In this document: positions 14,699 to 40,400 of the stretch, piece after piece
Position numbering within the stretch: the first letter of the stretch is position 1
How the letters are laid out: each line of letters starts with the position of its first letter
From: Chamaelirium japonicum
Taxonomy: Eukaryota; Streptophyta; Magnoliopsida; Liliales; Melanthiaceae
Direction of reading: 5' to 3'
NCBI GenBank assembly: GCA_947650365.1
Contig: CANTAL010000148.1
Coordinates: 496,001-560,000 of the forward strand
Length of the DNA stretch: 64,000 nt
Position numbers and translations under genes: made by a program
Notes under the pieces: generated by a model
The model's database searches: none
What the model was told of the DNA's origin: nothing
The model's input: only the letters and a program-made list of their open reading frames with translations

Positions 14699-14716
14699 TG
14701 GTGCCGTCTGTGGGAT
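14699..14716 (+). promoter_or_regulatory. Primer-binding-like site
   Basis: TGGTGCCGTCTGTGGGAT starts 3 bp after the 5' LTR. It closely resembles the TGGCGCCGTC-type primer sites of plant Ty3/gypsy elements. The tRNA used cannot be settled from sequence alone. Confidence 0.6.
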
Positions 14717-14836
14717 CTTCGACTGGTTCCTGCGAGAACACCCACGGCCACGCGGTTGAACGCCGGAGGCTCTCGTACCCCAAAGATAGCTCCGGCGACA
14801 AGGGTGCGCAGGCGACCGACGACCCGTGCGAGATCT

Positions 14837-16566: not shown

Positions 16567-16713
16567 CCTGCCATGAACGGAAGCATCCTGGCGTTGGCAA
16601 ACCCCTCAAAGGGCGAGCCCGCCGAACAGGATCATCGAGAGAAATTAACCGGGCAGGGGGCAGCTAGCACTTATCAGTTTCCTTTAAAAATAAAAAATGG
16701 TTCAAGTCTCTGA

Positions 16714-17000
16714 GTGTAGGGAAGTTTTTGAAGTCTTTTGGTTCGTTTAAACGTTTTCCGGGCTCAGAGACTATCGAGTTTTTGCGAGCATGCCGAGTTT
16801 TTCGTTTGCATATGTTTTAAAATAAAGGGTTGAATCGAATTAGCTGCCTCGCCCGGGGTATCACTCTCGAGGTCGCTGCGAACTCCTAAAGCGGACTCAT
16901 AAGCAACGCAGAGAAAGATAAGAGACACAAAGGCGAGCTCAAAAAGATGAAAATTTTATTGATGGACGAAAATCACAAAAACAGTTACAAGGCTGCGAGC
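16714..17000. other. Convergent 3' region between the gag and antisense units
   Basis: No coding frame is supported here. AATAAA on the plus strand near 16,820 could end a gag-side transcript. On the minus strand AATAAAA (16,954-16,960) lies about 40 bp beyond the antisense stop. Both are possible polyadenylation signals facing each other. Confidence 0.5.
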
Positions 17001-17528
17001 TCAAGGCTTGCTTGTCTCCGCCCCACTGTCGTCCCCTCGGCGCCGCTTCTTCGACCTTTCGGTTTTGTACTTCTCCACAGCGGCCAGGGCGCCTTTCTTG
17101 AGGAGATCGTCCAGTTGGGCTTGGAGGCGACCTTGCTGAGCCCGAAGGCCGTTGGCGTGTGTCTCCTTCAAGGCCGCGATCTCCGTCTTCAGAGCAGCGA
17201 CCTCGCCTTGAAGTTGAGCCGCCTCCCGCTGTGCAACCTCCCGGGCGGACACAGCTTCGTCTCGCTCCGCCTTGGCCTTGAAGAGGGCGGTAGTAGACAG
17301 GCCTTTGGCTACTTCGGCCATAGCGAGGCCTGACGCCAGGGTTTTAACCCTGCGGTGCAGTGCCTCCGACTCCGCCCTCAGCTCCTCGGAGCCTTTGGCT
17401 CGCTGGAGCTCGTGGATGTGCTCGTCCACCTTGCGCTCGGACCCCCGAAGGGAATCATCGAATAAGGCGGCCAGCGCCTTCCCGGCCCCAGCAACCTCCG
17501 CGGCCAGCGCCTGGCTCTGCTTCTCCGC
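17001..17528 (-). CDS. Antisense reading frame of the Tat-like element, distal coiled-coil part
   Basis: The minus-strand frame encodes an Ala/Glu/Lys-rich, strongly helical stretch (EVAQREAAQLQGEVAALK and similar) that reads as a long coiled coil. It ends in a basic KKRRRGDD segment that resembles a nuclear-localisation signal. Its upstream edge reads TTATGCAG and faces a GTACGC about 70 bp away, with intron-like ends and a GCTAAC branch-like motif between them. Function is unknown. Coiled-coil tails are common in hypothetical proteins from the antisense region of such elements. Confidence 0.6.
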   Translation of the reverse strand, partial: AEKQSQALAAEVAGAGKALAALFDDSLRGSERKVDEHIHELQRAKGSEELRAESEALHRRVKTLASGLAMAEVAKGLSTTALFKAKAERDEAVSAREVAQREAAQLQGEVAALKTEIAALKETHANGLRAQQGRLQAQLDDLLKKGALAAVEKYKTERSKKRRRGDDSGAETSKP

Positions 17529-17598
17529 CTGCATAAGGAAGGTAAAAAGGTTAGCAAGAATTGAGACTAAAATTTATCCAGACAGGTGCGGAGCGTAC

Positions 17599-17765
17599 CT
17601 CGACCAGACGCTCGCTTATGGATGCGAAGGGAGCTCGTGCGAAAACGTTGCGGCCCAGCAGCTGCCACACGTAGTGGGGCGCCCTCCCCTCCTCCGCAGA
17701 GGAGCCCGCGCTGGGACCACCGGGAGTTCCGGAAGGAGGGGGCACGTCGGGAGGAGTGAGGGCTA
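17599..17765 (-). CDS. Antisense reading frame of the Tat-like element, middle part
   Basis: A short minus-strand open stretch is Pro/Gly/Ser-rich at first, then has a compact segment HYVWQLLGRNVFARAPFAS and ISERLVE before a GTACGC donor-like site. It lies between the main and coiled-coil parts of the antisense region and is most simply one segment of the same transcription unit. No domain was recognised, and the exact edges are uncertain. Confidence 0.45.
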
Positions 17766-19649: not shown

Positions 19650-19725
19650 CAGAGCAGAAAAGAGAGAGCGAGCTGGAGAGAAGGGAGAGCTGTTTTTACG
19701 CGACGGTAAAAATCGCCCCCATCCC

Positions 19726-19735
19726 CTATTTATAG
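19726..19735 (-). promoter_or_regulatory. TATA box for the antisense unit
   Basis: The minus strand reads CCTATAAATAGGGG, a textbook plant TATA box, about 80 bp upstream of the ATG at 19649. A start site about 30 bp downstream would give a leader of roughly 45-50 nt. This suggests the antisense unit has its own promoter independent of the LTR. Confidence 0.65.
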
Positions 19736-20042
19736 GCAAGTGAAAGACAGGTGAATCGATCCGCAGTTAATGCCCGAGCGCGCTCAGCGAGGCGACGTGA
19801 CGACAGACGAAGCGACAGCTCGTTTCCTTCCAATCGTCAAGCGCCACGTGGGCCACGCATGGGAAAAGCTGCGCCGGCGCCGACACTGTCATTTACTGAC
19901 AGAAGCAGAGCGAATGAGGAGGAGACACATGTCTCGCGCCGATCGGGATCTCATGATGAGATTCGCCGTATCGGCGTTGAGCCTCGCGTCGCATTTAAGG
20001 CGAGGCGACCGTTGGAGATTTGGTGCGATACCCAAGTCACAA

Positions 20043-20800
20043 GATCGCTCGCGGCTGGTGCCCGTAGCTCGCCCGAGGCAGACCCTGACCGCATGTGACA
20101 AGCTCGCACCGGAAGGAGATCGCTCGTGGCTGACGCTCTCGGCCCGCCCAGCGTTTGTGAAATACTGGCAGTCAAAGCTCTCGACACAGATCGCTCGCGG
20201 CTGGTGCCCGTAGCTCGCCCGAGGCAGACCCTGACCGCATGTGACAAGCTTGCACCGGAAGGAGATCGCTCGTGGCTGACGCTCTCGGCCCGCCCAGCGT
20301 TTGTGAAATACTGGGAGTCAAAGCTCTCGACGCAGGCCGCCCATGGCTGGTGCCCGTAGCTCGCCCGAGGCAGACCCTGACCGCATGTGACAAGCTCGCA
20401 CCGGAAGGAGATCGCTCGTGGCTGACGCTCTCGGCCCGCCCAGCGTTTGTGAAATACTGGGAGTCAAAGCTCTCGGCGCAGGCCGCCCATGGCAGGTGCC
20501 CGCAGCCCGCCCGATGCAGACCCTGACCGCGTGTGACATGCTTGCACCGGAAGGAGATCGCTCGTGGCTGATGCTCCCGGCCCGCCCAGCGATTGTTGCA
20601 GCAGCATCGTTCTCGAGGTCTCACTAAGGAGAGATAGCTCATAGCAGATGCTCGCAGCCTCGCGCCGTATTCAAGATGAAGCGACCACCAGAAGGAGATC
20701 GCCCCGGAAGGAGATCGCTCGTGGCTGATGCTCCCGGCCCGCCCAGCGTTCGTTGAAATACTGGCAGTCAAAGCTCTCGCCGCAGATCGCCCGTAGCTAC
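20043..20800 (+). repeat. 146-bp tandem repeat near the 3' LTR
   Basis: The unit opens GATCGCTCGCGGCTGGTGCC and includes ACCGGAAGGAGATCGCTCGT and GTGAAATACTGG. Starts at about 20043, 20189, 20335 and 20481 are spaced 146 bp; a fifth, rearranged unit runs to about 20,800. Open frames on both strands here are repeat translations. The block sits upstream of the antisense TATA box, so it could serve as a promoter-proximal enhancer array for that unit; this is inference. Confidence 0.9.
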
Positions 20801-20915
20801 TATCTCCGCCCCGTCAGGAAACTGTTGCAGCAGACATTGATATCAGGCACATTACGAGGGATAGGAACTTGCTAAGACTCCTGAGCAAGCGTCGAGTTTC
20901 CTCGATCACTCCCTC

Positions 20916-20924
20916 AGGAGGGGG
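20916..20924 (+). promoter_or_regulatory. Polypurine tract
   Basis: AGGAGGGGG lies 3 bp before the 3' LTR, the expected place for the plus-strand primer of reverse transcription. Confidence 0.8.
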
Positions 20925-20927
20925 TAA

Positions 20928-22121
20928 TGTTGGGGGTAGTCAAAAACCACATATCCTGGATAGCCCGTCTAGGAGTTGGAACCATCGCAAGGAGATCGCC
21001 CTCCAGCCCGCCAGGAGCTCGCCCTCTCAGCCCTTCAGGAGTTCGCCCCCACAGGGAGCTGGATGGACACCTTGTATCTGAGTACAACTCGCACCTCTAG
21101 TCCCCACAATGACACGCCCAAATTCGATAAATGGCTTAGACAAAGAGCGCGAAGGAGCTCGCCCAAGCTCGTCCAGGAGCTCGCCATGCTCGCTCAGGAG
21201 CTCGCCTAGCTCGCACAGGAGCTCGCCCAAGCTCGTCCAGGAGCTCGCCATGCTCGTCCAGGAGCTCGCCATGCTCGCTCAGGAGCTCGCCTAGCTCGCA
21301 CAGGAGCTCGCCCAAGTTCGTCCAGGAGCTCGCCATGCTCGCTCAGGAGCTCGCCTAGCTCACACAGGAGCTCGCCCAAGCTCGTCCAGGAGCTCGTCAT
21401 GCTCGCTCAGGAGCTCGCCTAGCTCGCACAGGAGCTCGCCCAAGCTCACCCAGGAGCTCGCCCATGCTTACTCATGAGCTTGCCAAAGCTCGCCTAGACC
21501 CCTGTTTATCGAAGAGGTTGCTCTCGCGAGGTCCAACTCTTGATAAATATGGGCGAAGGGACGGAGCCGTACCGGGCGAGCTGGCCTTTGCTTTTTCCCT
21601 GAGATCACCCCCAGTAAAAGCAGCATAAAGATTACCAGGTGTCGAGAACCCACTGAAGCTACGTGGACGATTGTAGTCCACGGAAGTTCGCCCGAGTCGG
21701 TTCGAGACCTTCCAAACTTGAACATTCCAGAAGATCCACCTGGCAGCGACAAGACAGATACTCTCCCCCACTCCACCGCCTGGCGAGCTAGGCGACAAAG
21801 GTTGCCAGGGGCCTGATTCCCAAGGGTTGTCAGGGATCCATGTGGGCCGAAACGTGGGGGTCTAGAAGGTGCCGGAAGAAGCGGCCAGGTGTTGCATCCC
21901 GGTAGGTCGCAAAAGGCTATAAAGGTGCCACCCCCGGCTCCAAAGTACAGGTTCGAAATCCCTTTCCCTACCACTTTGGTATACAACAGCTCTCCGTTGT
22001 GCTACCATCACTGACTTGAGCGTCGGAGGGTCTGCGCTCCTAAGGGAGCCAGCCGTTCTCACGTTTCTATTTTCTTGGTCTTACAGGTGGCTCGCAAGGA
22101 CCAGGAAAAATCCCCCAAACA
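20928..22121 (+). repeat. 3' LTR
   Basis: This 1,194-bp LTR matches 13503-14696 with about a dozen single-base differences and no length change. It is followed directly by the second CGATC target duplication at 22122-22126. Confidence 0.95.
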
Positions 22122-25040
22122 CGATCCATTCTAATTCATTAGTATGATCAATTCTAATTCATTCGCACGATCCATTCTAATTCATTCGTACGATCCATTC
22201 TAATTCATTCGTACGATCGATTCTAATTCATTCGCACGATCCATTCTAATTCATTCGTACGATCCATTCTAATTTATTCGTATGATCCATTCTAATTTAT
22301 TCATTCAAATATATCCATTCTAATTCATTCGTACGATCCATTCTAATTCATTCGCACGATCCATTTTAATTCATTCGTACGATCCATTCTAATTCATTAG
22401 TATGATCAATTCTAATTCATTCGCACGATCCATTCTAATTCATTCGTACGATCCATTCTAATTCATTCGTACGATCCATTCTAATTCATTCGTATGATCA
22501 ATTCTAATTCATTCGCACGATCCATTCTAATTCATTCGTACGATCCATTCTAATTCATTCGCACGAATGTATCCATTCTAATTCATTCGTACGATCCATT
22601 CTAATTCATTTGTATGATCCATTCTAATTTATTTGCATGATTATACGATCCATTCTAATTCATTCGCACAAATGTATCCATTATAATTCATTCGTACGAT
22701 CCATTCTAATTCATTCGTATGATCTATTCTAATTCATTCGCACGAATGTAACCATTCTAATTCATTCGTATGATTCATTCTAATTCATTCGTATGAGCTA
22801 TTCTAATTCATTCGTACAATCCATTCTAATTCATTCGTACGATCCATTGTAATTCATTCATACAATCCATTCCGATTCATTCGCACAAATGTATCCATTC
22901 AAATTCATTCGTACGATCCATTCTAATTAATTCGTACGATCCATTCTAATTCAGTCGTATGAATGTATCCATTTTAATTCATTCGTACGATCCATTCTAA
23001 TTCATTCGTACGATCTAATTCATTCGTACGATCCATTCTAATTCATTCGTACGATCGATTCTAATTCATTCACACGATCCATTCTAATTCATTCGTACGA
23101 TCCATTCTAAGTCATTCGTATGATCCATTCTAATTTATTCGTTCAAATATGTCCATTGTAATTCATTCGTACGATCCATTCTAATTCATTCGCACGATCC
23201 ATTCTAATTCATTCGTACGATCCATTCTAATTCATTCATATGAACAATTCTAATTCATTCGTACAATCCATTCTAATTCAGTCGTATGAATGTATCCATT
23301 TTAATTCATTCGTACGATCCATTCTAATTCATTCGTACGATCTAATTCATTCGCACGATCCATTCTAATTCATTCGTACGATCGATTCTAATTCATTCTC
23401 ACGATTTATTCTAATTCATTTGTACGATCCATTCTAATTTATTCGTATGATCTATTCTAATTTATTCGTTCCAATATATCCATTCTAATTCATTCGTACG
23501 ATCCATTCTAATTCATTCGCACGATCCATTTTAATTCACTCGTACGATCCATTCTAATTCATTAGTATGATCAATTTTAATTCATTCGCATGATCCATTC
23601 TAATTCATTCGTACGATCCATTCTAATTCATTCGTACGATCCATTCTAATTCATTCGTATGATCAATTCTAATTCATTCGCACGATCCATTCTAATTCAT
23701 TCGTACGATCCATTCTAATTCTTTCGCACGAATGTATCCATTCTAATTCATTCGTACGATCCATTCTAATTCATTTGTATGATCCATTCGAATTTATTTG
23801 CATGAATATACGATCCATTCTAATTCATTCGCACAAATGTATCCATTATAATTCATTCGTACGATCCATTCTAATTCATTCGTATGATCTATTCTAATTC
23901 ATTCGCACGAATGTAACCATTCTAATTCATTCGTACGATTCATTCTAATTCATTCGTATGAGCTATTCTAATTCATTCGTACGATCCATTCTAATTCATT
24001 CGTACGATCCATTGTAATTCATTCATATGATCCATTCAGATTCATTCGCACAAATGTATCCATTCAAATTCATTCGTACGATCCATTCTAATTAATTCAC
24101 ACGATCCATTCTAATTCAGTCGTATGAATGTATCCATTTTAATTCATTCGTACGATCCATTCTAATTAATTCGTACGATCGATTCTAATTCATTCGCACG
24201 ATCCATTCTAATTCATTCGTACGATCCATTCTAATTCATTCGTATGATCCATTCTAATTTATTCGTTCAAATATATCCATTCTAATTCATTCGTACGATC
24301 CATTCTAATTCATTCGCACAATCCATTCTAATTCATTCGTATGATCCATTCTAATTCATTCGTACGATCCATTCTAATTCATTCGTACAATCCATTCTAA
24401 TTCAGTCGTATAAATATATCCATTTTAATTCATTCGTACGATCCATTCTAATTCATTCGTACGATCTAATTCATTCGTACGATCCATTCTAATTCATTCG
24501 TACGATCGATTCTAATTCATTTGCACGATCCATTCTATTTCATTCGTACGATCCATTCTAATTCATTCGCACGATCCATTCTAATTCATTCATACGATCC
24601 ATTCTTTTTCATTCATACGATCCATTCTAATTCATTCGCACAATCCATTCTAATTCATTCGTACGATCCATTCTAATTCATTCGTATGATCCATTCTAAC
24701 TCATTCGGTGGATCCATTGTAATTCATTCGTACGATCCATTCTAATTCATTCGCACGTTATTCGTACGATCTATTCTAATTCATTCGTACGATCTATTCT
24801 AATTCATTCGCATGATCCATTCTAATTCATTCGTACGATCCATTCTAATTCATTCGTACAATCCATTCAAATTCATTCGTACGATGCAATCTAATTCATT
24901 CGCACAAATGTATCTATTCTAATTTATTCGTACAATGCGTTCTAATCTATTTGTACGATCCATTCTAATCCATTCGTACGATCCATTCTATACATTCGTT
25001 CGAATGAATTAGAATGGATCATACGAATGAATTAGAATGG
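22122..25040. repeat. Satellite array between the LTR element and the first rDNA insert
   Basis: Plus-strand monomers run to 24989, then about 50 bp of minus-strand monomers lead into the rDNA insert. The (C/A)GATTCATTCGCACAAATG landmark recurs at about 22,869 and 24,038, giving a sub-repeat of about 1.17 kb. No gene is present. Confidence 0.96.
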
Positions 25041-25084
25041 ATATGCTTAAACTCAGCGGGTGGCCCCGCCTGACCTGGGGTCGC
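25041..25084 (-). rRNA. 26S rRNA 5' fragment (left, minus)
   Basis: The reverse complement reads GCGACCCCAGGTCAGGCGGG and then CCACCCGCTGAGTTTAAGC, the conserved start of plant 26S rRNA. It stops at GCATAT and continues as satellite. Confidence 0.93.
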
Positions 25085-25329
25085 GTTGCGGGGGGGCCGT
25101 TGTCGCGCGGAGCACGGCGTCGGTCCCGGTTGGGTCACGGGGCCCTGCTGCGCCTCCGGGGCACGGGGACACGGCGTCCGGCTACTGATTCCACCACTCG
25201 CCGTGCCCGGCCCCGCTGGCAGCCCAAACTTTGACCCGCCGCGCACGGGGGCGCGGTGAGGCCAATCTCAGCGTCCATGCCGCGGCTGCACCCCCGGGCG
25301 GGGGGGCGGGCACGGAGCGACACGAGGCG
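25085..25329 (-). other. ITS2 spacer, copy 1
   Basis: This is the GC-rich spacer of about 245 bp between the 26S start and the 5.8S end. Its length is normal for an angiosperm ITS2. Confidence 0.85.
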
Positions 25330-25401
25330 TGACGCCCAGGCAGGCGTGCCCTCGGTCGGATGGCTTCGGGTGCAACTTGCGTTCAAAGACTCGATGATTC
25401 G

Positions 25402-25460
<59 letters not shown>

Positions 25461-25492
25461 ACCTAGATATCCGTTGCCGAGAGTCGTTCGTG
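25330..25492 (-). rRNA. 5.8S rRNA gene copy 1 (likely pseudogene)
   Basis: About 163 bp, close to the usual plant length of 164. The minus strand shows CGATGAAGAACGTAGC, the plant 14-mer GAATTGCAGAATCC and TTTGAACGCA, ending GGGCGTCAC. Against the usual plant sequence it has changes such as ATCTAGGTTCTCGC where ATCTCGGCTCTCGC is normal, and CGAATCATCGAG. These are mostly C-to-T or G-to-A type, as expected for a methylated, unselected copy. It has no rDNA promoter here and lies in satellite, so transcription as rRNA is unlikely. Confidence 0.9.
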
Positions 25493-25761
25493 TGTTGGAA
25501 TCTTTGTCAGGGCGGGTGACGTCATTCACCGGGTCCCCCCACATGAGGAGGTGGGGGTGCCCCGGCGGCGGCGGCGCGCCGCGTTCCGATCCGCTTGTTC
25601 CTTGGCGCTAGTCGCGCCGGGGTTCGTCCGTGCCCCGCCCGCGCCCCCCGGGGGGGTTGCGGGCGGGGGGCGCGGAGGTGGGGCAAGGGCGGGCCCCTCC
25701 TCTCTCCGCAGGATTCCGTTCACGCGTTCGCGGTCTTCCGGTCGTGTTTTCCGAGTCTCGA

Positions 25762-25762
<1 letters not shown>
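25493..25762 (-). other. ITS1 spacer, copy 1
   Basis: This is the spacer of about 270 bp between 18S and 5.8S. On the minus strand it holds GGCGC, five bases, then GCGCCAAGGAA (plus-strand 25598-25618), the conserved ITS1 core of flowering plants. Confidence 0.88.
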
Positions 25763-25823
<61 letters not shown>

Positions 25824-25870
25824 GTAAGGTTCAGTGGACTTCTCGCGACGTCACGGGCGGCGGACTGCCT
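25763..25870 (-). rRNA. 18S rRNA 3' fragment, copy 1
   Basis: The last 107 or so bases of 18S: the minus strand carries AGTCGTAACAAGGTTTCCGT and GTAGGTGAACCTGCGGAAGG before ITS1. The match stops abruptly in the GGCGGACTGCC region, where the plus-strand 26S piece begins. Confidence 0.92.
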
Positions 25871-25919
25871 GCAACGCGACCCCAGGTCAGACGGGGCCAC
25901 CCGCTGAGTTTAAGCATAT
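25871..25919 (+). rRNA. 26S rRNA 5' fragment (right, plus)
   Basis: GCAACGCGACCCCAGGTCAG and CCACCCGCTGAGTTTAAGC lie in plus orientation, the inverted twin of the left 26S piece. The next bases are satellite (AAGCATATCCATTCTAATTC across the joint). Confidence 0.93.
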
Positions 25920-28900
25920 CCATTCTAATTCATTCGTACGATCCATTCTAATTCATTCGCATAAATGTATCCATTCTAATGCATTCGTACGATTCATTCT
26001 AATTCATTCGCACGATCCATTCTAATTCATTCGTACGATCCATTCTTATTCAATCATACGATCCATTCTAATTCATTCACACAATCCATTCTAATTCATT
26101 CGTACGATCCATTCTAATTCATTCGTATGATCCATTCTAACTCATTCGGTGGATCCATTCTAATTCATTCGTACGATCCATTCTAATTCATTCGCACGAT
26201 CCATTCTAATTTATTCGTACGATCCATTCTAATTCATTCGTACGATCTATCTAATTCATTCGCATGATCCATTCTAATTCATTCGTACGATCCATTCTAA
26301 TTCATTCGTACAATCCATTCAAATTCATTCGTACGATGCAATCTAATTCATTCGCACAAATGTATATATCCTAATTCATTCGTACAATGCGTTCTAATCC
26401 ATTCGTACGATCCATTCTAATCAATTCGTACGATCCATTCAAATTCATTCGCACGAATGTAACCATTCTAATTCATTCATATGATCCATTCTAATTCATT
26501 CGTACGATCCATTCCAATTCATTCATCCGATCCATTCTAATTCATTCGCACGAATGTATCCATTCTAATTCATTCGTATGATCCATTCTATTTCATTCGT
26601 ACGATCCATTCTAATTCATTCGTACGATCCATTCTAATTCATTCGTAAGATCCATTCTAATTCATTCGTACGATCCATTCTAATTCATTCGTACGATCCA
26701 TTCAAATTCATTCGCACGAATGTATCCATTCTAGTTCATTCGTACGATCCATTCTAATTCATTCGTACGATCCATTCTAATTCATTCGCACGATCCATTC
26801 TAATTCATTCGTACGATCAATTCTAATTCATTCGTACGATCCATTCTAATTCATTCGCACGAATGTATCCATTCTAATTCATTCGTACGATCCTGAATTA
26901 GAATGGATCATACGAATGAATTAGAATGGATACCCTTGTGCATATGAATTAGAATGGATCGTACGAATGAATTAGAATGGATCATATTAATGAATTAGAA
27001 TGGATCATACGAATGAATTAGAATGGATACATTCGTGCGAATTAATTAGAATGGATCGTGCGAATCAATTAGACTGGATCGTGCGAATGAATAAGAATGG
27101 ATCATACGAATGAATTAGAATGGATTGTACGAATTAATTAGAATGGATACATTCGGGCGAATGAATTAGAAAAGATTATATGAATGAATTAGAATGGATC
27201 ATACGAATAAATTAGAATGGATCATACGAATTAATTAGAATGGATCATACGAATGAATTAGAATGGATCGTACGAATGAATTAGAATGGATACATTCGTG
27301 CGAATGAATTAGAATGGATAGTGCGAATGAATTAGAACGGATTGTACGAATGAATTAGAATGGATCGTGCGAATGAATTAGAATGGATCGTATGAATGAT
27401 TAAGAATGGATCGTAAGAATGAATTAGAATGGATCGTGCGAATGAATTAGAATGAATCGTACGAATGCATTAGAATGGATACATTCGTGCGAATGAATTA
27501 GAATGGATCATACGAATGAATTAGAATAGATCGTGCGAATGAATTAGAATGAATCGTACGAATGAATTAGAATGGATCGTACGAATGAATTAAAATGGAT
27601 ACATTTGTTCGAATAAATTAGAATAGATTGTACGAATGAATTATAATGGATTGTATGAATAAATTAGAACGGATCATACAAATGAATTAGAATTGATCGT
27701 GCGAATGAATTAGAATGGATACATTCTTGCGAATGAATTTGAATGGATCGTACGAATGGATCGTACGAATGAATTAGAATGATTACATTCGTGCAAATGA
27801 ATTAGAATGGATCGTACACATAAATTAGAATGGATACATTCGTGCGAATGAATTAGAATGGATCGTATAAATGAATTAGAATGGATCGTACGAATGAATT
27901 AGAATTGATCATGCGAATGAATTAGAATGGATTGTACGAATGAATTAGAATGGATACATTTGTGCGAATGAATTAGAATGAATCGTGCGAATGAATTAGA
28001 ATGGATCGTACGAATGAATTAGAATAGATATATTTATGCGAATGAATTAGAATGGATCGAACGAATGAATTAGAAAGGATACATTTGTGCGAATGAATTA
28101 GAATAGATCATACGAATGAATTAGAATGGATCGTACGAATGAATTAGAATGGATACATTTGTGCGAATGAATTAGAATGGATCGTATATTCGTGCAAATA
28201 AATTAATATGGATCGTACGAATGAATTAGAATGGATCCACCGAATGAGTTAGAATGGATCATACGAATGAATTAGAATGGATCGTACGAATGAATTAGAA
28301 TGGATTGTGCGAATGAATTAGAATGGATCGTATGAATGAATAAGAATGGATCGTGCGAATGAATTAGAATGGATCGTATGAATGAATTAGAATGGATCGT
28401 GCGAATGAATTAGAAACATTCGTGCGAATGAATTAGAATGTATCGTACGAATGAATTAGAATGGATCGTACAAATAAATTAGAATGGTTACATTCGTGCG
28501 AATGAATTAGAATGGATCGTACGAATCAATTAGAATGGATACATTCATGCGAATGAATTAGAATGGATCATAAGAATGAATTAGAATGGATCGTGCGAAT
28601 GAATTAGAATAGATCATACGAAGGAATTAGAATGGATCGTATGGATGAATTAGAATGGATAGTGCGAATGAATTAGAATGGATACATTCGTGCGAATGAA
28701 TTAGAATGGATCATACGAATAAATTAGATTAAAAACATTCAAATGAATTAGAATGGATACATTCGTGTTAAAGATTTAGAATGGATCGTATGAATGAATT
28801 AGAATGGATTGTACGAAAGAATTAGAATGGATCGTACGAATGAATTAGAATGGATCGTACGAAAGAATTATAATGGATCGTACAAATGAATTAGAATGGA

Positions 28901-31900
28901 TCGTACGAATGAATTAGAATAGATCGTGCGAATGAATTAGAATAGATAGTGCGAATGAATTAGAATGGATCGTACGAATGAATTAGAATGAATACATTCG
29001 AGTGAATGAATTAGAATGGATCGTGCGAATGAATTAGAATGGATAGTGCGAATGAATTAGAATGGATCATACGAATGAATTAGAATGGATACATTCGTGC
29101 GAATGAATTAGAATTGATCGTACGAATGAATTAGAATACATCGTACAAATAAATTAGAATTGATCGTGCGAATGAATTAGAATGGATCGTACGAATGAAT
29201 TAGAATGGATCGTACGAATGAATTAGAATGGATCATGCGAATGAATTAGAATGGATCATACGAATGAATTAGAATGGATATATTTGAACGAATAAATTAG
29301 AATGGATCATACGAATGAGTTAGAATGGATCGTACGAATGAATTAGAATGGATCGTGCGAAAGAATTAGAATCGATCGTACGAATGAATTAGAATGGATC
29401 GTACGAATGAATTAGATCGTATGAATGAATTAGAATGGATCGTACGAATGAATTAAAATGGATACATTCATACGACTGAATTAGAATGGATTTTACGAAT
29501 GAATTAGAATGGATCGTACGAATGAATTAGAATGGATCGTACGAATGAATTAGAATGGACCGTGCGAATGAATTAGAATGGATCGTACGAATGAATTAGA
29601 ATGGATATATTTGAACGAATAAATTAGAATGGATCATACGAATGAATTAGAATGGATCGTACGAATGAATTAGAATGGATCGTGCGAATGAATTAGAATC
29701 GATCGTACGAATGAATTAGAATGGATCGTACGAATGAATTAGATCGTACGAATGAATTAAAATGGATACATTCATACGACTGAATTAGAATGGATCGTGC
29801 GAATTACTTAGAATGGATCGTACGAGTGAATTTGAATGGATACATTTGTGCGAATGAATCTGAATGGATTGTATGAATGAATTACAATGGATCGTACGAA
29901 TGAATTAGAATGGATCGTACGAATAAATTAGAATAGCTCATACGAATGAATTAGAATGAATCGTACGAATGAATTAGAATGGTTACATTCATGCGAATGA
30001 ATTAGAATAGATCATACGAATGAATTAGAATGGATCATACGAATGAATTAGAATGGATACATTTGTGCGAATGAATTAGAATGGATCGTATATTCGTGCA
30101 AATAAATTAGAATGGATCGTACAAATGAATTAGAATGGATCGTACGAATGAATTAGAATGGATACATTCGTGCGAATGAATTAGAATGGATCGTACGAAT
30201 GAATTAGAATGAATCGTGTGAATGAATTAGAATTGATCATACGAATGAATTATAATAGATCGTACGAATGAATTAGAATGGATACATTCGTGCGAATGAA
30301 TTAGAATGGATCGTACGAATGAATTAGAATGGATCGTGCGAATGAATTAGAATTGATCATATGAATGAAATAGAATGGATCGTACGAATGAATTAGAATG
30401 TATCGTGCGAATGAATTAGAATGGATCGTACGAATGAATTAGAATGGATATATTTGAACGAATAAATTAGAATGGATCATACGAATGAATTAGAATGAAT
30501 TGTATGAATGAATTAGAATGGATCGTGCGAATGAATTAGAATCGATCGTACGAATGAATTAGAATGGATCGTACGAATGAATTAGATCGTGCGAATGAAT
30601 TAGAATGGATCGTACGAATGAATTAGAATGGATAATGCGAATGAATTAGAATAGATCGTACGAATGAATTAGAATGGATCGTACGAATAAATTAGAATGA
30701 ATCGTGCGAATGAATTAGAATGGATCATACGAATGAATTAGAATGGATTCACCGAATGAGTTAGAATGGACCATACGAATGAATTAGAATGGATCGTACG
30801 AATGAATTAGAATGGATTGTGCGAATGAATTAGAATGGATCGTATGAATGAATAAGAATGGATCGTACGAATGAATTAGAATGGATCGTGCGAATGAATT
30901 AGAATGAATCGTACGAATGTATCAGAATGGATCGTACGAATGAATTAGAATGAATCGTACGATCCATTCTAATTCATTCGTCCGATCCATTCTAATTCAT
31001 TCGCACGAATGTATCCATTCTAATTCATTCGTACAATCTATTCTAATTCATTCGCACGATCCATTCTAATTCATTCGTATGATCCATTCTAATTAATTCC
31101 TACGATCTATTCTAATTCCTTCGCTCGAATGTATCCATTCTAATTTATTCGTTCGATCCATTCTAATTCATTCGTACGATCCATTCAAATTCATTCGCAT
31201 GATCCATTCTAATTCATTCGTACGATCCATTCTAATTCATTCTCACGAATGTAACCTTTCTAATTCAATTGTATGATCCAATCTAATTCATTCGTACGAT
31301 CCATTCTAATCCATTCGTACGATCCATTCTAATCTATTCGTATAATCCATTCTAATTCATTCATACGATCCATTCTAATTCATTCTCACAAATGTAACCT
31401 TTCTAATTCATTTGTACGATCCATTCTAATTCATTCGTACGATCCATTCTAATCCATTCGTACGATCCCTTCTAATCCATTCGTACGATCCATTCTAATT
31501 CATTCGCATGAATATAACCATTCTAATTCATTCGTACGATCCATTCTAATTCATTCCTACGATCCATTCTAATTCATTCGCACGAATGTATCCATTCTAA
31601 TTCATTGGCACGATCCATTCTAATTCATTCCTATGACCCATTCTAATTCATTCGTACGATCCATTCTAATTCATTCGCTCGAATGTATCCATTCTAATTC
31701 ATTCGTACGATCCATTCTAATTCGTTCGTACGATCCATTCTAATTCGTTCGTACGATCCATTCTAATTCATTCGTATGATCAATTCTAATTCATTCGTAC
31801 AATCCATTCTAATTCAGTCGTATGAATGTATCCATTTTAATTATTCGTACGATCCATTCTAATTCATTCGTACGATCTAATTCATTCGTACGATCCATTC

Positions 31901-33593
31901 TAATTCATTCGTACGATCGATTCTAATTCATTCGCACGATCCATTCTAATTCATTCGTACGATTCATTCTAATTTATTCGTATGATCCATTCTAATTTAT
32001 TCGTTCAAATATATCCATTCTAATTCATTCCTACGATCCATTCTAATTCATTCGCACGATCCATTTTAATTCATTCATACGATCCATTCTAATTCATTAG
32101 TATGATCAATTCTAATTCATTCACACGATCCATTCAAATTCATTCGTACGATCCATTCTAATTCATTCGTACGATCCATTCTAATTCATTCGTATAATCA
32201 ATTCTAATTCATTCGCACGATCCATTCTAATTCATTCATAAGATCCATTCTAATTCATTCACACGAATGTATCTATTTTAATTCATTCGTACGATCCATT
32301 CTAATTCATTTGTACGATCCATTCTAATTTATTTGCATGAATATACGATCCATTCTAATTCATTCGCACAAATGTATCCATTATAATTCATTTGTACGAT
32401 CCATTCTAATTCATTTGTATGATCTATTCTAATTCATTCACACGAATGTAACCATTCTAATTCATTCGTACGATTCATTCTAATTCATTCGTATGAGCTA
32501 TTCTAATTCATTCGTACGATCCATTGTAATTCATTCATATAATCCATTCAGATTCATTCGCACAAATGTATCCATTCAAATTCATTCGTACGATCCATTC
32601 TAATTAATTCGCACGATCCATTCTAATTCAGTCGTATGAATGTATCCATTTTAATTCATTCATACGATCCATTCTAATTCATTCGTACGATCTAATTCAT
32701 TCGTACGATCCATTCTAATTCATTCGTACGATCGATTCTAATTCATTCGCATGATCCATTCTAATTCATTCGTACGATCCATTCTAATTCATTCGTATGA
32801 TCCATTCTAATTTATTCATTCAAATATATCCATTCTAATTCATTCGTACGATCCATTCTAATTCATTTGCACGATCCATTCTAATTCATTCGTACGATCC
32901 ATTCTAATTCATTCGTACGATCCATTCTAATTCATTCATACAATCCATTCTAATTCAGTCGTATGAATGTATCCATTTTAATTCATTCGTACGATCCATT
33001 CTAATTCATTCGTACGATCTAATTCATTCGTACGATCCATTCTAATTCATTCGTATGATTGATTCTAATTCATTCGCACGATCCATTCTAATTCATTCGT
33101 ACGATCCATTGTAATTCATTCGCACGATCCATTCTAATTAATTCATACGATCCATTCTTTTTCATTCATATGATCCATTCTAATTCATTTGCACAATCCA
33201 TTCTAATTCATTCGTACGATCCATTCTAATTCATTCGTATGATCCATTCTAACTCATTCGGTGGATCCATTCTAATTAATTCGTACGATCCATTCTAATT
33301 CATTCGCACGTTATTCGTACGATCTATTCTAATTCATTCGTACGATCTATTCTAATTCATTCGCATGATCTATTCTAATTCATTCGTACGATCCATTCTA
33401 ATTCATTCGTACAATCCATTCAAATTCATTCGTACGATGCAATCTAATTCATTCGCACAAATGTATCTATTCTAATTTATTCGTACAATGCGTTCTAATC
33501 CATTCGTACGATCCATTCTAATCCATTCGTACGATCCATTCTATACATTCGTGCGAATGAATTAGAATGGATCGTATGAATGAATTAGAATGG
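25920..33593. repeat. Satellite array between the two rDNA inserts
   Basis: Plus strand 25920-26893, minus strand 26894-30958, plus strand 30960-33542, then about 50 bp of minus strand before the second rDNA insert. The minus block is rich in 28-bp monomers (GGATACATTCGTGCGAATG). No gene is seen. Confidence 0.96.
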
Positions 33594-33637
33594 ATATGCT
33601 TAAACTCAGCGGGTGGCCCCGCCTGACCTGGGGTCGC
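33594..33637 (-). rRNA. 26S rRNA 5' fragment, copy 2 (left, minus)
   Basis: It has the same 26S start as in insert 1, with CTCAGCGGGTGGCCCCGCCT on the plus strand, and joins satellite at ATATGC. Confidence 0.93.
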
Positions 33638-33891
33638 GTTGCGGGGGGACCGTCGTCGCGTGGAGCACGGCGTCGGTCCCGATCGGGTCACGGGGCCCTG
33701 CTGCGCCTCCGGGGCACGGGGACACGACGTCCGGCTACTGATTCCACCACTCGACGTGCCCAGCCCCGCCGGCAGCTCGAACTTTGACCCGCCGCACACG
33801 GGGGCGTGGTGAGGCCTATCTCCGCGTCCATGCCACGACCGCACCCCCGGGGGGGGGGGGGGGGGGGGGCGGGCACGGAGCGACACGAGGC
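33638..33891 (-). other. ITS2 spacer, copy 2
   Basis: This is the spacer between the 26S start and 5.8S, with an uninterrupted run of about 21 G at 33,849-33,869 where insert 1 has a shorter, interrupted run. A run of this length is also where sequencing and assembly err. Confidence 0.82.
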
Positions 33892-33964
33892 GTGACGCCC
33901 AGGCAGGCGTGCCCTCGGTCGGATGGCTTCGGGCGCAACTTGCGTTTAAAGACTCGATGATTTG

Positions 33965-34017
<53 letters not shown>

Positions 34018-34053
34018 ACGGGAACCTAGATATCCGTTGCCGAGAGTCGTTCG
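33892..34053 (-). rRNA. 5.8S rRNA gene copy 2 (pseudogene)
   Basis: About 162 bp. It keeps CGATGAAGAACGTAGC and GAATTGCAGAATCC. It has TTTAAACGCA where TTTGAACGCA is nearly invariant, and GGTTCCCGTATCG where copy 1 has GGTTCTCGCATCG. The extra changes in highly conserved positions mark it as unselected. Confidence 0.88.
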
Positions 34054-34324
34054 TGTGTTGGAATCTTTGTTAGGGCGGGCGACGTCCTTCAACGGGTCCC
34101 ACCACGTGAGGAGGTGGGGGTGCCCCAGCGGCGGTGGTGTGCCGCGTTCCAATCCGCTTGTTCCTTGGCGCTAGTCGCGCCGGGGTTCGTCCGTACCCCG
34201 CCCGCGCCCCCCGGGGGGGTTGCGGGCGGGGGGCGTGGAGGTGGTGCGGGGGCGGGCCCCTCCTCCCTCCGCGGGATTCCGTTCACGCGTTCGCGGTCTT
34301 CCGGTCGTGTTTTCCGAGTCTCGA

Positions 34325-34325
<1 letters not shown>
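34054..34325 (-). other. ITS1 spacer, copy 2
   Basis: The spacer of about 270 bp retains the GCGCCAAGGAA core on the minus strand (plus-strand 34161-34181). Confidence 0.85.
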
Positions 34326-34408
<83 letters not shown>

Positions 34409-34432
34409 GGATGTCACGGGCGTTGGACCGCC
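34326..34432 (-). rRNA. 18S rRNA 3' fragment, copy 2
   Basis: It matches the 18S end of insert 1, including TCCGCAGGTTCACCTACGGA on the plus strand. It then breaks into the 26S piece at the same base. Confidence 0.92.
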
Positions 34433-34433
34433 T

Positions 34434-34482
34434 GCAACGCGACCCTAGGTCAGACGGGGCCACCAGCTGAGTTTAAGCATAT
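34434..34482 (+). rRNA. 26S rRNA 5' fragment, copy 2 (right, plus)
   Basis: This is the inverted twin of 33594-33637. It reads CCACCAGCTGAGTTTAAGC with one further change from the 26S consensus, then passes into satellite. Confidence 0.92.
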
Positions 34483-37400
34483 CCATTCTAATTCACTCGT
34501 ACGATCCATTCTAATTCATTCGCATGAATGTATCCATTCTAATGCATTCGTACGATTCATTCTAATTCATTCGCACGATCCATTCTAATTCATTCGTACG
34601 ATCCATTCTTATTCAATCATACGATCCATTCTAATTCATTCACACAATCCATTCTAATTCATTCGTACGATCCATTCTAATTCATTCGTATGATCCATTC
34701 TAACTCATTCGGTGGATCTATTCTAATTCATTCGTACGATCCATTCTAATTCATTCGCACGATCCATTCTAATTTATTCGTACGATCCATTCTAATTCAT
34801 TTGTACGATCTATTCTAATTCATTCGCATGATCCATTCTAATTCATTCGTATGATCCAATCTAATTCATTCGTACATTCCATTCAAATTCATTCGTACGA
34901 TGCAATCTAATTCATTCGCACAAATGTATCTATCCTAATTTATTCGTACAATGCGTTCTAATCCATTCGTACGATCCATTCTAATCCATTCGTACGATCC
35001 ATTCAAATTCATTCGCACGAATGTAACCTTTCTAATTCATTCATATGATCCATTCTAATTCATTCGTACGATCCATTCTAATTCATTCATCCGATCCATT
35101 CTAATTCATTCGCACGAATGTATCCATTCTAATTCATTCGTACGATCCATTCTATTTCATTCGTACGATCCATTCTAATTCATTCGTAAGATCCATTCTA
35201 ATTCATTCGTACGATCCATTCTAATTCATTCGTACGATCCATTCAAATTCATTCGCACGAATGTATCCATTCTAGTTCATTCGTACGATCCATTCTAATT
35301 CATTCGTACGATCTATTCTAATTCATTCGCACGATCCATTCTAATTCATTCGTACGATCAATTCTAATTCATTCGTACGATCCATTCTAATTCATTCGCA
35401 CGAATGTATCCATTTTAATTCATTCGTACGATCCTGAATTAGAATGGATCGTACGAATGAATTAGAATGGATACCCTTGTGCATATGAATTAGAATGGAT
35501 CGTACGAATGAATTAGAATGGATCATATTAATGAATTAGAATGGATCGTACGAATGAATTAGAATGGATACATTCGTGCGAATGAATTAGAATGGATCGT
35601 GCGAATCAATTAGACTGGATCGTGTGAATGAATAAGAATGGATCATACGAATGAATTAGAATGGATCGTACGAATTAATTAGAATGGATACATTCGGGCG
35701 AATGAATTAGAATAGATTATATGAATGAATTAGAATGGATCGTACGAATGAATTAGAATGGATCATACGAATTAATTAGAATGGATCATACGAATGAATT
35801 AGAATGGATCGTACGAATGAATTAGATTGGATACATTCGTACGAATGAATTAGAATGGATTGTGCGAATGAATTAGAACGGATTGTACGAATGAATTAGA
35901 ATGGATCGTGCGAATGAATTAGAATGTATCGTATGAATGAATAAGAATGGATCGTACGAATGAATTAGAATGGATCGTGCGAATGAATTAGAATGAATCG
36001 TACGAATGCATTAGAATGGATACATTCGTGCGAATGAATTAGAATGGATCGTACGAATGAATTAGAATGGATCGTGCGAATAAATTTGAATGAATCGTAC
36101 GAATGAATTAGAATGGATCGTACGAATGAATTAGAATGGATACATTTGTACGAATAAATTAGAATAGATTGTACGAATGAATTAGAATGGATTATATGAA
36201 TAAATTAGAACGGATCGTACGAATGAATTAGAATTGATCATGCGAATGAATTAGAATGGATACATTCTTGCGAATGAATTTGAATGGATCGTACGAATGA
36301 ATTAGAATGGTTACATTCGTGCAAATGAATTAGAATGGATCGTACACATAAATTAGAATGGATACATTCGTGCGAATGAATTAGAATGTATCATACAAAT
36401 GAATTAGAATGGATCGTACGAATGAATTAGAATTGATCATGCGAATGAATTAGAATGGATTGTACGAATGAATTAGAATGGATACATTTGTGCGAATGAA
36501 TTAGAATGAATCGTGCGAATGAATTAGAATGGATCGTACGAATGAATTAGAATGGATATATTTATGCGAATGAATTAGAATGGATCGAACGAATGAATTA
36601 GAATGGATACATTTGTGCGAATGAATTAGGATAGATCATACGAATGAATCAGAATGGATCGTACGAATTAATTAGAATGGATACATTTGTGCGAATGAAT
36701 TAGAATGGATCGTATATTCGTGCAAAGAAATTAGAATGGATCGTATGAATGAATTAGAATGGATCCACCGAATGAGTTAGAATGGATCATACGAATGAAT
36801 TAGAATGGATCGTACGAATGAATTAGAATGGATTGTGCGAATGAATTAGAATGGATCATATGAATGAATAAGAATGGATCGTGCGAATGAATTAGAATGG
36901 ATCGTATGAATGAATTAGAATGGATCGTGCGAATGAATTAGAAACATTCGTGCGAATGAATTAGAATATATCGTACGAATGAATTAGAATGGATCGTGCG
37001 AATGAATAAGAATAGATCATACGAAGGAATTAGAATGGATCGTATGGATGAATTAGAATGGATAGTGCGAATGAATTAGAATGGATACATTCGTGTGAAT
37101 GAATTAGAATGGATAGTGCGAATGAATTAGAATGGATAGTGCGAATGAATTAGAATGGATAGTGCGAATGAATTAGAATGGATACATTCGTACGAATGAA
37201 TTAGAATGGAACATACGAAGAAATTAGATTAAAAACATTCAAATGAATTAGAATGGATACATTCGTGTTAAAGATTTAGAATGGATCGTACGAATGAATT
37301 AGAATGGATCGTACGAAAGAGTTAGAATGGATCGTACGAATGAATTAGAATGGATCGTACGAAAGAATTAGAATGGATCGTACAAATGAATTAGAATGGA

Positions 37401-40400
37401 TCGTATGAATGAATTAGAATAGATCGTGCGAATGAATTAGAATGGATAGTGCGAATGAATTAGAATGGATCGTACGAATGAATTAGAATGAATACATTCG
37501 AGCGAATGAATTAGAATGGATCATGCGAATGAATTAGAATGGATAGTGTGAATGAATTAGAATGGATCATATGAATGAATTAGAATGGATACATTTGTGC
37601 GAATGAATTAGAATTGATCGTACGAATGAATTAGAATACATCGTACAAATAAATTAGAATTGATCGTGCAAATGAATTAGAATGGATCGTACGAATGAAT
37701 TAGAATGGATCGTACGAATGAATTAGAATGGATCGTGCGAATGAATTAGAATGGATCATACGAATGAATTAGAATGGATATATTTGAATGAATAAATTAG
37801 AATGGATCATACGAATGAGTTAGAATGGATCGTACGAATGAATTAGAATGGATCGTGCGAAAGAATTAGAATCGATCGTACGAATGAATTAGAATGGATC
37901 GTACGAATGAATTAGATCGTACGAATGAATTAGAATGGATCGTACGAATAAATTAAAATGGATACATTCATAAGACTGAATTAGAATGGATTTTACGAAT
38001 GAATTAGAATGGATCGTACGAATGAATTAAAATGGATCGTACGATTGAATTAGAATGGATCATGCGAATGAATTAGAATGGATCGTACGAATGAATTAGA
38101 ATGGATATATTTGAACGAATAAATTAGAATGGATCATACGAATGAATTAGAATGGATCGTACGAATGAATTAGAATGGATCGTGCGAATGAATTAGAATC
38201 GATTGTACGAATGAATTAGAATGGATCGTACGAATGAATTCGATCGTATGAATGAATTAAAATGGATACATTCATACGACTGAATTAGAATGGATCATGC
38301 GAATTAATTAGAATGGATCGTACGAGTTAATTTGAATGAATACATTTGTGCGAATGAATCTGAATGGATTGTATGAATGAATTACAATGGATCGTACGAA
38401 TGAATTAGAATGGATCGTACGAATGAATTAGAATAGCTCATACGAATGAATTAGAATGAATCGTATGAATGAATTAGAATAGTTACATTCGTGCGAATAA
38501 ATTAGAATAGATCATACGAATGAATTAGAATGGATCGTACGAATGAATTAGAATGGATACATTTATGCGAATGAATTAGAATGGATCGTATATTCGTGCA
38601 AATAAATTAGAATGGATCGTACAAATGAATTAGAATGGATCGTTCGAATGAATTAGAATGGATACATTCGTGCAAATGAATTAGAATGGATCGTACGAAT
38701 GAATTAGAATGGATCGTGTGAATGAATTAGAATTGATCATACGAATGAATTAGAATAGATCGTACGAATGAATTAGAATGGATACATTCGTGCGAATGAA
38801 TTAGAATGGATCGTACGAATGAATTAGAATGGATCGTGCGAATGAATTAGAATTGATCATATGAATGAATTAGAATGGATCGTACGAATGAATTAGAATG
38901 TATCGTGCGAATGAATTAGAATGGATCGTACGAATGAATTAGAATGGACATATTTGAACGAATAAATTAGAATGGATCATACGAATGAATTAGAATGAAT
39001 CGTACGAATGAATTAGAACGGATCGTGCGAATGAATTAGAATCGATCGTACGAATGAATTAGAATGGATCGTACGAATGAATTAGATCGTACGAATGAAA
39101 TAGAATGGATCGTACGAATGAATTAGAATGGATCTTATGAACGAATTAGAATGGATCGTGCGAATGAATTAGAATGGATCGTACGAATAAATTAGAATAG
39201 ATCGTGCGAGTGAATTAGAATGGATCGTACGAATGAATTAGAATGGATCGTCCGATCCATTCTAATTCATTTGCACGAATGTATCCATTCTAATTCATTC
39301 GTACAATCCATTCTAATTCATTCGCACGATCCATTCTAATTCATTCGTATGATCCATTCTAATTCATTCTTACGATCTATTCTAATTCCTTCGCTCGAAT
39401 GTATCCATTCTAATTCATTCATTCGATCCATTCTAATTCATTCGTACGACCCATTCAAATTCATTCGCATGATCCATTCTAATTCATTCGTACGATCCAT
39501 TCTAATTCATTCTCACGAATGTAACCTTTCTAATTCAATTGTATGATCCAATCTAATTCATTCGTACGATCCATTCTAATCCATTCGTACGATCCATTCT
39601 AATCCATTCGTATGATCCATTCTAATTCATTCATACGATCCATTCTAATTCATTCTCACAAATGTAACCTTTCTAATTCATTTGTACGATCCATTCTAAT
39701 TCATTCGTACGATCCATTCTAATCCATTCGTACGATCCCTTCTAATCCATTCGTACGATCCATTCTAATTCATTCGTACGATCCATTCTAATTCATTCCT
39801 ACGATCCATTCTAATTCATTCGCACGAATGTATCCATTCTAATTCATTTGCACGATCCATTCTAATTCATTCCTAGGATCCATTCTAATTCATTCGTACG
39901 ATCCATTCTAATTCATTCGCTCGAATGTATCCATTCTAATTCATTCGTACGATCCATTCTAATTCGTTCATACGATCCATTCTAATTCGTTCGTACGATT
40001 CATTCTAATTCATTCGCACGATCCATTCTAATTCATTTGTACGATCCATTTTAATTCATTCGCATGATCCATTCTAATTCATTCGTATGATACATTCGTG
40101 CAAATGAATTAGAATGGATCGTACGAATGAATTAGAATGGATCGTACGAATGAATTAGAATAGATCGTGCGAATAAATTAGAATGGATCATACGAATGAA
40201 TTAGAATAGATATATTCATGCGAATGAATTAGAATGGATCGTACGAATGAATTAGAATAGATCGTGCGAATAAATTAGAATGGATCGTATGAATAAATTA
40301 GAATGGATCGTACGAATGAATTAAAATGGATACATTTGTGCGAATGAATTAGAATGGATCATATGATTGAATTTGAATGGATCGTACAAACGAATTAGAA

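What the first reader, a model, noticed from the sequence alone, without database searches (positions are those of the whole stretch)
24990..25970. rDNA fragment bounded by about 100-bp inverted ends made half of 26S and half of satellite
Left arm 24990-25089 and right arm 25871-25970 are reverse complements of each other. Each holds about 50 bp of satellite and about 49 bp of 26S start plus ITS2 edge. Between them lie minus-strand ITS2, 5.8S, ITS1 and the 18S end. Normal rDNA never has a 26S start next to the 18S end in opposite orientation. A simple reading is that one 26S-satellite joint formed first and was then duplicated in inverted form (fold-back or template switching), trapping a spacer of rDNA. 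The result has the outline of a fold-back element, although no transposase or target duplication is visible.
Basis: partly seen in the sequence, partly recalled or inferred. Interest (0 to 1): 0.75.

Follow-up and report, generated by a model that had tools for sequence, protein, structure and literature searches.

The report
rDNA fragment folded back in satellite
A broken piece of ribosomal DNA became joined to a plant satellite repeat, was copied back in inverted form at the joint, and is now found in several places together with large blocks of that satellite; it looks like a rearrangement scar carried along by the satellite, not a mobile element.

Summary
Arms 24990-25089 and 25871-25970 are inverted repeats (110 nt, 92%), each half satellite and half 26S start/ITS2 edge, around minus-strand ITS2, 5.8S, ITS1 and 18S end. 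A second copy sits at 33543-34533; at least ten copies lie on eight contigs of the 1.52-Gb plant assembly, two of them chromosome-sized. All ten found have both joints, the inner 18S/ITS2 junction and the outer satellite flip at the same places, apart from point changes and small gaps: one founding event; an assembly chimaera is very unlikely. Similarity does not end at the arms: 2.3 kb of satellite on one side is shared by all ten, and largely colinear homology reaches about 14 kb between some. Core and flank distances correlate (Mantel r 0.86; 0.72 without C69). The unit is a passenger of satellite blocks, not a fold-back element. Best reading: a 26S-satellite joint formed first, then fold-back/template switching copied it inverted and resumed ~524 bp upstream. 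The copies show CpG decay. Real and instructive, but a known kind of rearrangement.

The parts
24466..24989 (-). satellite segment X (one copy of the ~524-bp direct repeat flanking the insert)
   Evidence: 96.1% identical to 25918-26441 over 507 ungapped columns, 34 gap columns; shared variants seen in the C98 pair
24990..25044 (-). satellite half of the left inverted arm, in the opposite orientation to the satellite to its left
   Evidence: the flip at 24989/24990 is the same in 10 of 10 copies
25040..25089 (-). 26S start plus ITS2 edge of the left arm; joint with satellite at 25040-25044 (GATAT, i.e. ATATC on the rDNA strand)
25089..25329 (-). ITS2
   Evidence: lies between 5.8S and the 26S start; outer boundary from recalled plant rDNA landmarks
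25330..25485 (-). 5.8S rRNA pseudogene
   Evidence: Rfam RF00002, 134.9 bits
25486..25763 (-). ITS1
   Evidence: between 5.8S and the 18S end; boundary with 18S recalled
25764..25872 (-). 3' end of 18S rRNA; inner junction at the shared GC, 25871-25872
   Evidence: 18S sequence continuing past this point in fragments L023/L024 of the same genome
25871..25920 (+). inverted copy of ITS2 edge plus 26S start (right arm), ending at the second 26S-satellite joint
25918..26441 (-). satellite segment X, second copy; its first ~53 bases are the satellite half of the right arm
33543..34533 (-). second copy of the cassette (5.8S at 33893-34048)
33019..33542 (-). segment X of the second copy, lower-coordinate side
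   Evidence: 95.3% identical to 34481-35004 over 507 ungapped columns, 34 gap columns
34481..35004 (-). segment X of the second copy, higher-coordinate side
22444..40097 (.). tandem duplication of a satellite block (22444-31569 and 30955-40097) carrying one cassette each
   Evidence: 9269-column alignment, 92.1%

Best explanation
A rearrangement scar that became a passenger of satellite DNA. (1, inferred) A stretch of 45S rDNA reaching from the 18S end to the 26S start became joined to the 23-bp satellite at a shared ATATC. (2, inferred from anatomy) While that chimaera was replicated or repaired, the new strand ran from satellite through the joint and 49 bp of rDNA, switched at a shared GC to the opposite strand at the 18S end, copied 18S-ITS1-5.8S-ITS2-26S back over the same joint and about 53 bp of satellite, then returned to satellite in the first orientation about 524 bp upstream of where it had left. 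This leaves inverted arms with an rDNA spacer, flanked by a ~524-bp direct satellite repeat. (3, shown) One founding structure is present in at least ten copies. (4, shown as shared flanks and genealogy; the route is inferred) The copies lie in homologous satellite blocks, in pairs on C160 and C7 and singly on six other contigs, including chromosome-sized C11. (5, shown as pattern) The copies differ mostly by transitions, with excess change at CpG, as expected of methylated DNA decaying independently. It has no evident function.
For: Same joints, inner junction and outer flip in 10 of 10 copies apart from point changes and a 5-base gap in C55. Right flank 60-2300 bp differs by 3.4-5.6% between copies (0.27% for C190/C69), rDNA cores by 5.2-9.6% (0.8% for C190/C69). 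Same-orientation satellite segments elsewhere in the window align at 87-93% in 14 of 15 control pairs; the fifteenth, 98.9%, looks like a recent local duplicate. On the right side largely colinear homology reaches about 14 kb for C98/C190 and C98/C55 and about 10 kb for pairs with C11, although some 500-bp pieces match best elsewhere in the array (4 of 10 copies). Core and right-flank distances correlate, r = 0.86, p = 0.0001 with all 10 copies and r = 0.72, p = 0.0002 without C69; both trees contain (C31,C11), (C160a,b), (C190,C69) and (C7a,b). The two flanking X segments differ by 4.4% on average against 6.4-6.5% from 12 other X copies, and in the 227.7 kb held no two X copies lie 480-570 bp apart at any of five identity cut-offs (20 to 57 X copies). 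CpG change is 7-10.7% in 18S, ITS1, 5.8S, ITS2 and the 26S start.
Against: The order joint-then-inversion is inferred: no copy with a single joint and no inverted arm was found; the ten other rDNA fragments looked at lack the satellite joint. The 524-bp repeat could instead be a ~2-kb skip to the next higher-order unit (X recurs about every 2.5-3.1 kb); three array copies of X are as close as 3.5-4.7% to the flanking ones, and within a single copy the two X differ by 3.0-6.7%. One cassette-free X pair 1.42 kb apart exists on C7, so X spacing varies without rDNA. In C7a and C7b the left flank leaves the common sequence within about 250-500 bp and the left X-like segment is only about 92% like the right one. 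Breakpoint overlaps of 5, 2 and 1 bp were not tested against chance and are too short to name a pathway. A full palindrome trimmed asymmetrically at its centre gives the same arms and is not excluded. CpG change in the left-arm rDNA is only 4.8% (3 of 63).
Confidence: 0.72

Rival explanations
1. A non-autonomous transposable element with ~100-bp terminal inverted repeats (fold-back/MITE-like) that moves by a transposase supplied in trans.
For: Inverted ~100-bp arms around a spacer; ten copies on eight contigs.
Against: Homology between copies runs past the arms on both sides; flank and core share one genealogy; the outer 50 bp of one arm is simply the continuing flank satellite; all ten copies found sit in satellite; no short target duplication that differs between copies.
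Confidence: 0.04
2. Palindrome route: a broken end with the rDNA-satellite joint was duplicated into a large palindrome, and asymmetric deletion of its centre removed nearly all of one rDNA arm, leaving 49 bp of it.
For: Gives the same arms and spacer; the satellite changes orientation 34 times in the window by motif count, four of these at the two cassettes, so inverted intermediates look common here.
Against: Needs an extra deletion ending at the GC overlap, and does not by itself give the ~524-bp direct repeat.
Confidence: 0.2
3. Assembly chimaera or contamination.
For: Intact 45S arrays seem to be absent from this assembly (0 exact hits to the 26S start; one search found only fragments and cassettes but scored 39 of 25,644 candidates), so rDNA is handled badly here.
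Against: Ten copies with different substitutions on eight contigs, same joints, concordant flanks.
Confidence: 0.02

Closest known systems
Fold-back inversions / inverted duplications with a spacer (human: PMC3907307, abstract read; yeast: PMC7467729, abstract read)
   Same: Inverted duplication around a single-copy spacer with short inverted sequences at the turn (human), formed through single-strand hairpins (yeast).
   Different: Those are chromosomal rearrangements seen in patients or selected in yeast; here the arms are ~100 bp, the duplicated template is an rDNA-satellite joint, and the product was later multiplied with satellite.
rDNA-derived satellite repeats, e.g. the IGS-derived satellite of tomato (PMC2679016, abstract read)
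   Same: rDNA sequence changes and is multiplied as repeats, with segmental duplication.
   Different: Here the rDNA (18S end to 26S start) is not the repeat unit; it is a rare insert, ten copies found, in an existing 23-bp satellite.
Dispersed rDNA fragments of the same genome
   Same: Same source sequence, mutated fragments.
   Different: Ten other rDNA-fragment places inspected lack the satellite joint and the inverted arm.
Foldback (FB) transposons and MITEs (recalled)
   Same: Outline of inverted ends around a spacer.
   Different: No independent insertions among the ten copies; flanks shared between copies.

Membership tests
Foldback/TIR DNA transposon or MITE | Homology between copies stops at the terminal repeats; flanks are unrelated | tested here: not met
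   Flanks homologous for at least ~250 bp on the left and 2.3 kb on the right in 10 of 10 copies
Foldback/TIR DNA transposon or MITE | Short target-site duplication, different at each insertion | tested here: not met
   The same outer junction is present in 10 of 10 copies; the flanking repeat seen is ~524 bp of satellite
Foldback/TIR DNA transposon or MITE | Transposase in the element or a related autonomous copy | not tested
   No ORF listing or transposase search was run; the unit reads as rDNA and satellite throughout
Fold-back inversion / template-switch product | Inverted copy of a pre-existing junction with spacer between | tested here: met
   Same 26S-satellite joint in both arms of 10 of 10 copies, exact over 20 bases in both arms of 9
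Fold-back inversion / template-switch product | Microhomology at the switch points | tested here: inconclusive
   ATATC at the joint, GC at the 18S/ITS2 junction (18S reference L023/L024; junction), 1 bp at the outer flip; not tested against chance
Fold-back inversion / template-switch product | Precursor carrying the single joint | tested here: inconclusive
   None found among the rDNA matches inspected; intact rDNA arrays seem not to be assembled
rDNA-derived satellite | rDNA part is the tandemly amplified unit | tested here: not met
   Ten copies found, at most two near each other, against 451,579 exact hits of a satellite 38-mer
Functional 45S rRNA gene | rRNA regions conserved relative to spacers | tested here: inconclusive
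   CpG change is alike in 5.8S (7.05%) and ITS (7.85%, 7.97%); non-CpG change is lower in 5.8S (1.71%) than in ITS1 and ITS2 (2.72%, 3.45%). A truncated unit with 18S end to 26S start cannot be a complete gene.

The most novel reading that the evidence does not exclude
The rDNA cassette is a natural bar code showing that this satellite spreads between chromosomes in long blocks (about 14 kb or more) copied as units, perhaps through extrachromosomal circles or long-tract break repair, rather than only by local unequal exchange; and the same fold-back copying that made the cassette also makes the satellite's many orientation flips.
Probability: 0.3. Interest if true: 0.6.

Novelty: new variant of a known kind. 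Interest (0 to 1): 0.38.

Why it matters
Satellite arrays are hard to trace because their units all look alike. A distinctive rDNA-satellite scar with about ten comparable copies makes the block size and route of satellite spread between chromosomes measurable, and shows at base resolution how a fold-back or template-switch event inside a satellite can be fixed and then multiplied.

Tried and rejected
Transposable fold-back element: rejected because copies share flanks beyond the arms and core and flank genealogies agree. Assembly chimaera: judged very unlikely. The joint hit at C6:14506796 looked like a possible precursor but is satellite without rDNA. The rDNA fragments at C7:48546335 and C227:381118 also looked like possible precursors; both run on into 26S and show no satellite in the stretch read. 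(up to 3 mismatches) printed 100 of 11,770 matches, most of them plain satellite; its 15 exact rows omit the four C7 joints although these are exact in the fetched sequence, so that listing is incomplete. One-mismatch hits at C15:810346 and C252:185637/214891 were not inspected; the rDNA search lists no rDNA there, but that search scores only its best candidates, so ten copies is a lower bound. An apparent 10-bp repeat at the insert edges (note) was dropped as a sign of transposition because the satellite is 23-bp periodic; the ~524-bp register repeat replaced it. Identifying the species or the satellite in print failed: a 14-base satellite string gave 0 papers and one search gave 0; the listings (20 of 26 shown; 5 of 5; 15 of 25; 15 of 46) show no title or abstract start that describes an inverted rDNA-satellite cassette. 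(12 of 21 shown) and the abstracts supplied the comparisons.

Rows dropped: C69 from one of two Mantel runs and; C69 and C7b. One search used 28 of the 32 best of 1,794 X hits (at most 200 per sequence); left out were three C69 segments and the X-like segment left of C7a (92.2%); the one left of C7b (91.6%) ranked 33rd. One search used 4 of 10 copies, right side only. The arm comparison printed was out of register and is not used (replaced). The count of flips holding TCGTACGA (13 of 14) is not used, because each consensus monomer holds that octamer.
Full report
What is there. The window is C160:496001-560000 of a 1,518,659,071-base assembly of 3,253 contigs; that it is a plant is judged from the rDNA and satellite, not from a record. 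Most of the window is a 23-bp satellite (consensus near TCGTACGATCCATTCTAATTCAT) interrupted by other insertions. At 24990-25970 an inverted repeat of 110 nt (92% complementary) encloses 761 nt. Reading the minus strand, the order is 49 bp of inverted 26S start/ITS2 edge, then the 3' end of 18S, ITS1, 5.8S (Rfam hit), ITS2 and 26S start, then satellite (ITS and rRNA boundaries other than 5.8S rest on recalled landmarks). Both ends pass from 26S to satellite at the same base (TTTAAGCATATC|CATTCTAATTC).

It is not alone. A second copy lies at 33543-34533, inside an ~8.5-kb tandem duplication of the satellite block. Exact search of the whole assembly gives 20 joints and DNA search gives ten cassettes: two each on C160 and C7 and one each on C31, C98, C11, C190, C69 and C55. 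Ten is a lower bound, since that search scores only its best candidates. One C7 copy has lost part of 5.8S and ITS2. C190 and C69 are almost identical (0.8% in the core, 0.27% in the flank) and may be two haplotypes of one locus. Aligned, all ten show the left joint, inner junction, right joint and outer satellite flip at the same places, with point changes and, in C55, a 5-base gap in the left arm: one founding structure. In 9 of 10 both arms carry the exact 20-base joint; C11 has one arm with one mismatch. Apart from C190/C69, copies differ in the core by 5.2-9.6%, mostly transitions.

How it spread. If the arms were the ends of a mobile element, similarity should stop there. It does not. 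In one search (nine copies, without C69) the first 250 bp of left flank match at 95-99% of ungapped columns in pairs without C55; pairs with C55 give 90-97% with 0-102 gap columns. C69 behaves like C190. On the right side the ten copies align over the first 2.3 kb with 0.3-5.6% difference. Between C98, C55 and C190, right-hand homology stays largely colinear to about 14 kb, and with C11 to about 10 kb; some 500-bp pieces match best elsewhere in the array, for instance about 4.1 kb away. The left flank agrees for about 3 kb or more except in C7a and C7b, which leave the common sequence within about 250-500 bp. Same-orientation satellite from other parts of the window aligns at 87-93% in 14 of 15 control pairs and at 98.9% in one. 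Distances of rDNA core and flanking satellite correlate (r 0.86, p 0.0001; r 0.72, p 0.0002 without C69) and the same four sister pairs appear in both trees. The cassette travels with its satellite surroundings.

How it arose. The satellite on the far side of the insert restarts about 524 bp upstream in register: 24466-24989 and 25918-26441 are 96.1% identical, and the second copy shows the same at 95.3%. Such a pair, 1.45-1.54 kb apart with the cassette between, is found at 8 of 10 copies at 92% identity or more to the query segment X; at C7a the left partner is 92.2% alike and at C7b 91.6%. In other parts of the arrays X recurs about every 2.5-3.1 kb. In the 227.7 kb held, no two X copies lie 480-570 bp apart, whether 20 copies (94% or more) or 57 (88% or more) are counted; one cassette-free pair 1.42 kb apart exists on C7. 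The two flanking segments differ by 4.4% on average (7 x 9 comparisons; 3.0-6.7% within one copy), close to the 3.8-3.9% within each side and below the 6.4-6.5% to 12 other array copies, though three of these come as close as 3.5-4.7%. A duplication at about the time of the founding event is the simplest reading; a ~2-kb skip to the next higher-order unit is not excluded. Breakpoints share short overlaps, not tested against chance: ATATC between 26S and satellite; GC between 18S (continuing past this point in L023/L024) and the ITS2 edge; one base at the outer flip. Because the two arms carry the same artificial joint, the joint most likely existed before it was copied in inverted form. A strand that crossed the joint, turned onto the opposite strand at the 18S end, copied back over the same joint and re-entered satellite upstream explains every piece. 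A trimmed palindrome would give the same arms but not the direct repeat.

Context. The satellite itself changes orientation 34 times by a simple motif count in the window (four of the counted changes belong to the two cassettes). Of the 15 reverse-to-forward changes away from the cassettes, nine read as near-perfect 22-bp palindromes of the type GAATGGATCGTACGATCCATTC, centred on the self-complementary TCGTACGA of the consensus monomer. These flips are partly copies of each other, so no probability is attached. They make fold-back copying in this satellite plausible.

Decay. Relative to the majority sequence, substitution at CpG is 7-10.7% in 18S, ITS1, 5.8S, ITS2 and the right 26S piece, and 4.8% in the left-arm rDNA (3 of 63). 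Non-CpG change is 1.0-3.5%. Most changes are C>T and G>A (8 of 10 copies used). This fits methylated, non-functional DNA. Non-CpG change is lower in 5.8S (1.71%) than in ITS1 and ITS2 (2.72%, 3.45%), which is what some past or residual constraint, or base composition, could also give. The assembly holds no exact match to the normal 26S start, so the functional array is apparently not assembled and the donor cannot be compared.

Known relatives. Fold-back inversions with spacers are documented in human disease (PMC3907307, abstract) and yeast (PMC7467729, abstract); an rDNA-derived satellite is known in tomato (PMC2679016, abstract). Paper searches (listings only) showed no description of an inverted rDNA-satellite cassette spread with satellite blocks; they cover open-licence papers only. 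Verdict: real, single origin, passenger; a new variant of known rearrangement types, of moderate interest mainly as a tracer of satellite spread.

Noticed in passing
window 13503-22121: An element with two ~1194-bp direct terminal repeats (99.0% identical, TG...CA ends) and an apparent 5-bp target duplication CGATC: looks like a young LTR retrotransposon in the satellite.
   Followed up: partly
window ~50863-54086: AT-rich non-satellite island ending in a poly-A run next to satellite, perhaps a 5'-truncated LINE.
   Followed up: no
whole assembly G000: One satellite 38-mer has 451,579 exact hits, nearly equal on the two strands. Scaled by its density in this window (35 hits in ~50 kb) this gives ~650 Mb of satellite, a rough figure that would be lower if other arrays are more homogeneous: an unusually large share of a 1.52-Gb genome.
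   Followed up: partly
window, nine sites, e.g. 2191, 7964, 30948, 43366: Reverse-to-forward satellite flips centred on near-perfect 22-bp palindromes around TCGTACGA; orientation flips occur about every 1.5 kb.
   Followed up: partly
L023 / L024 (C2:104914656, C765:23413): An 18S-ITS1 fragment lies between two copies, by eye about 300 bp or more, of an unrelated sequence, at two places that may be alleles: another rDNA fragment flanked by a direct repeat.
   Followed up: no
L050 / L051 (C7:48546335, C227:381118): Another rDNA fragment in two places, ITS2 running into 26S, preceded by unrelated sequence.
   Followed up: no
assembly G000: No exact normal 26S start and only cassettes or fragments among the 15 5.8S hits (39 of 25,644 candidates scored): functional 45S arrays appear to be missing from the assembly.
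   Followed up: partly
L047 1264 and 2687 (C7): Two copies of satellite segment X 1.42 kb apart in reverse orientation with no rDNA between, left of the C7a cassette.
   Followed up: no
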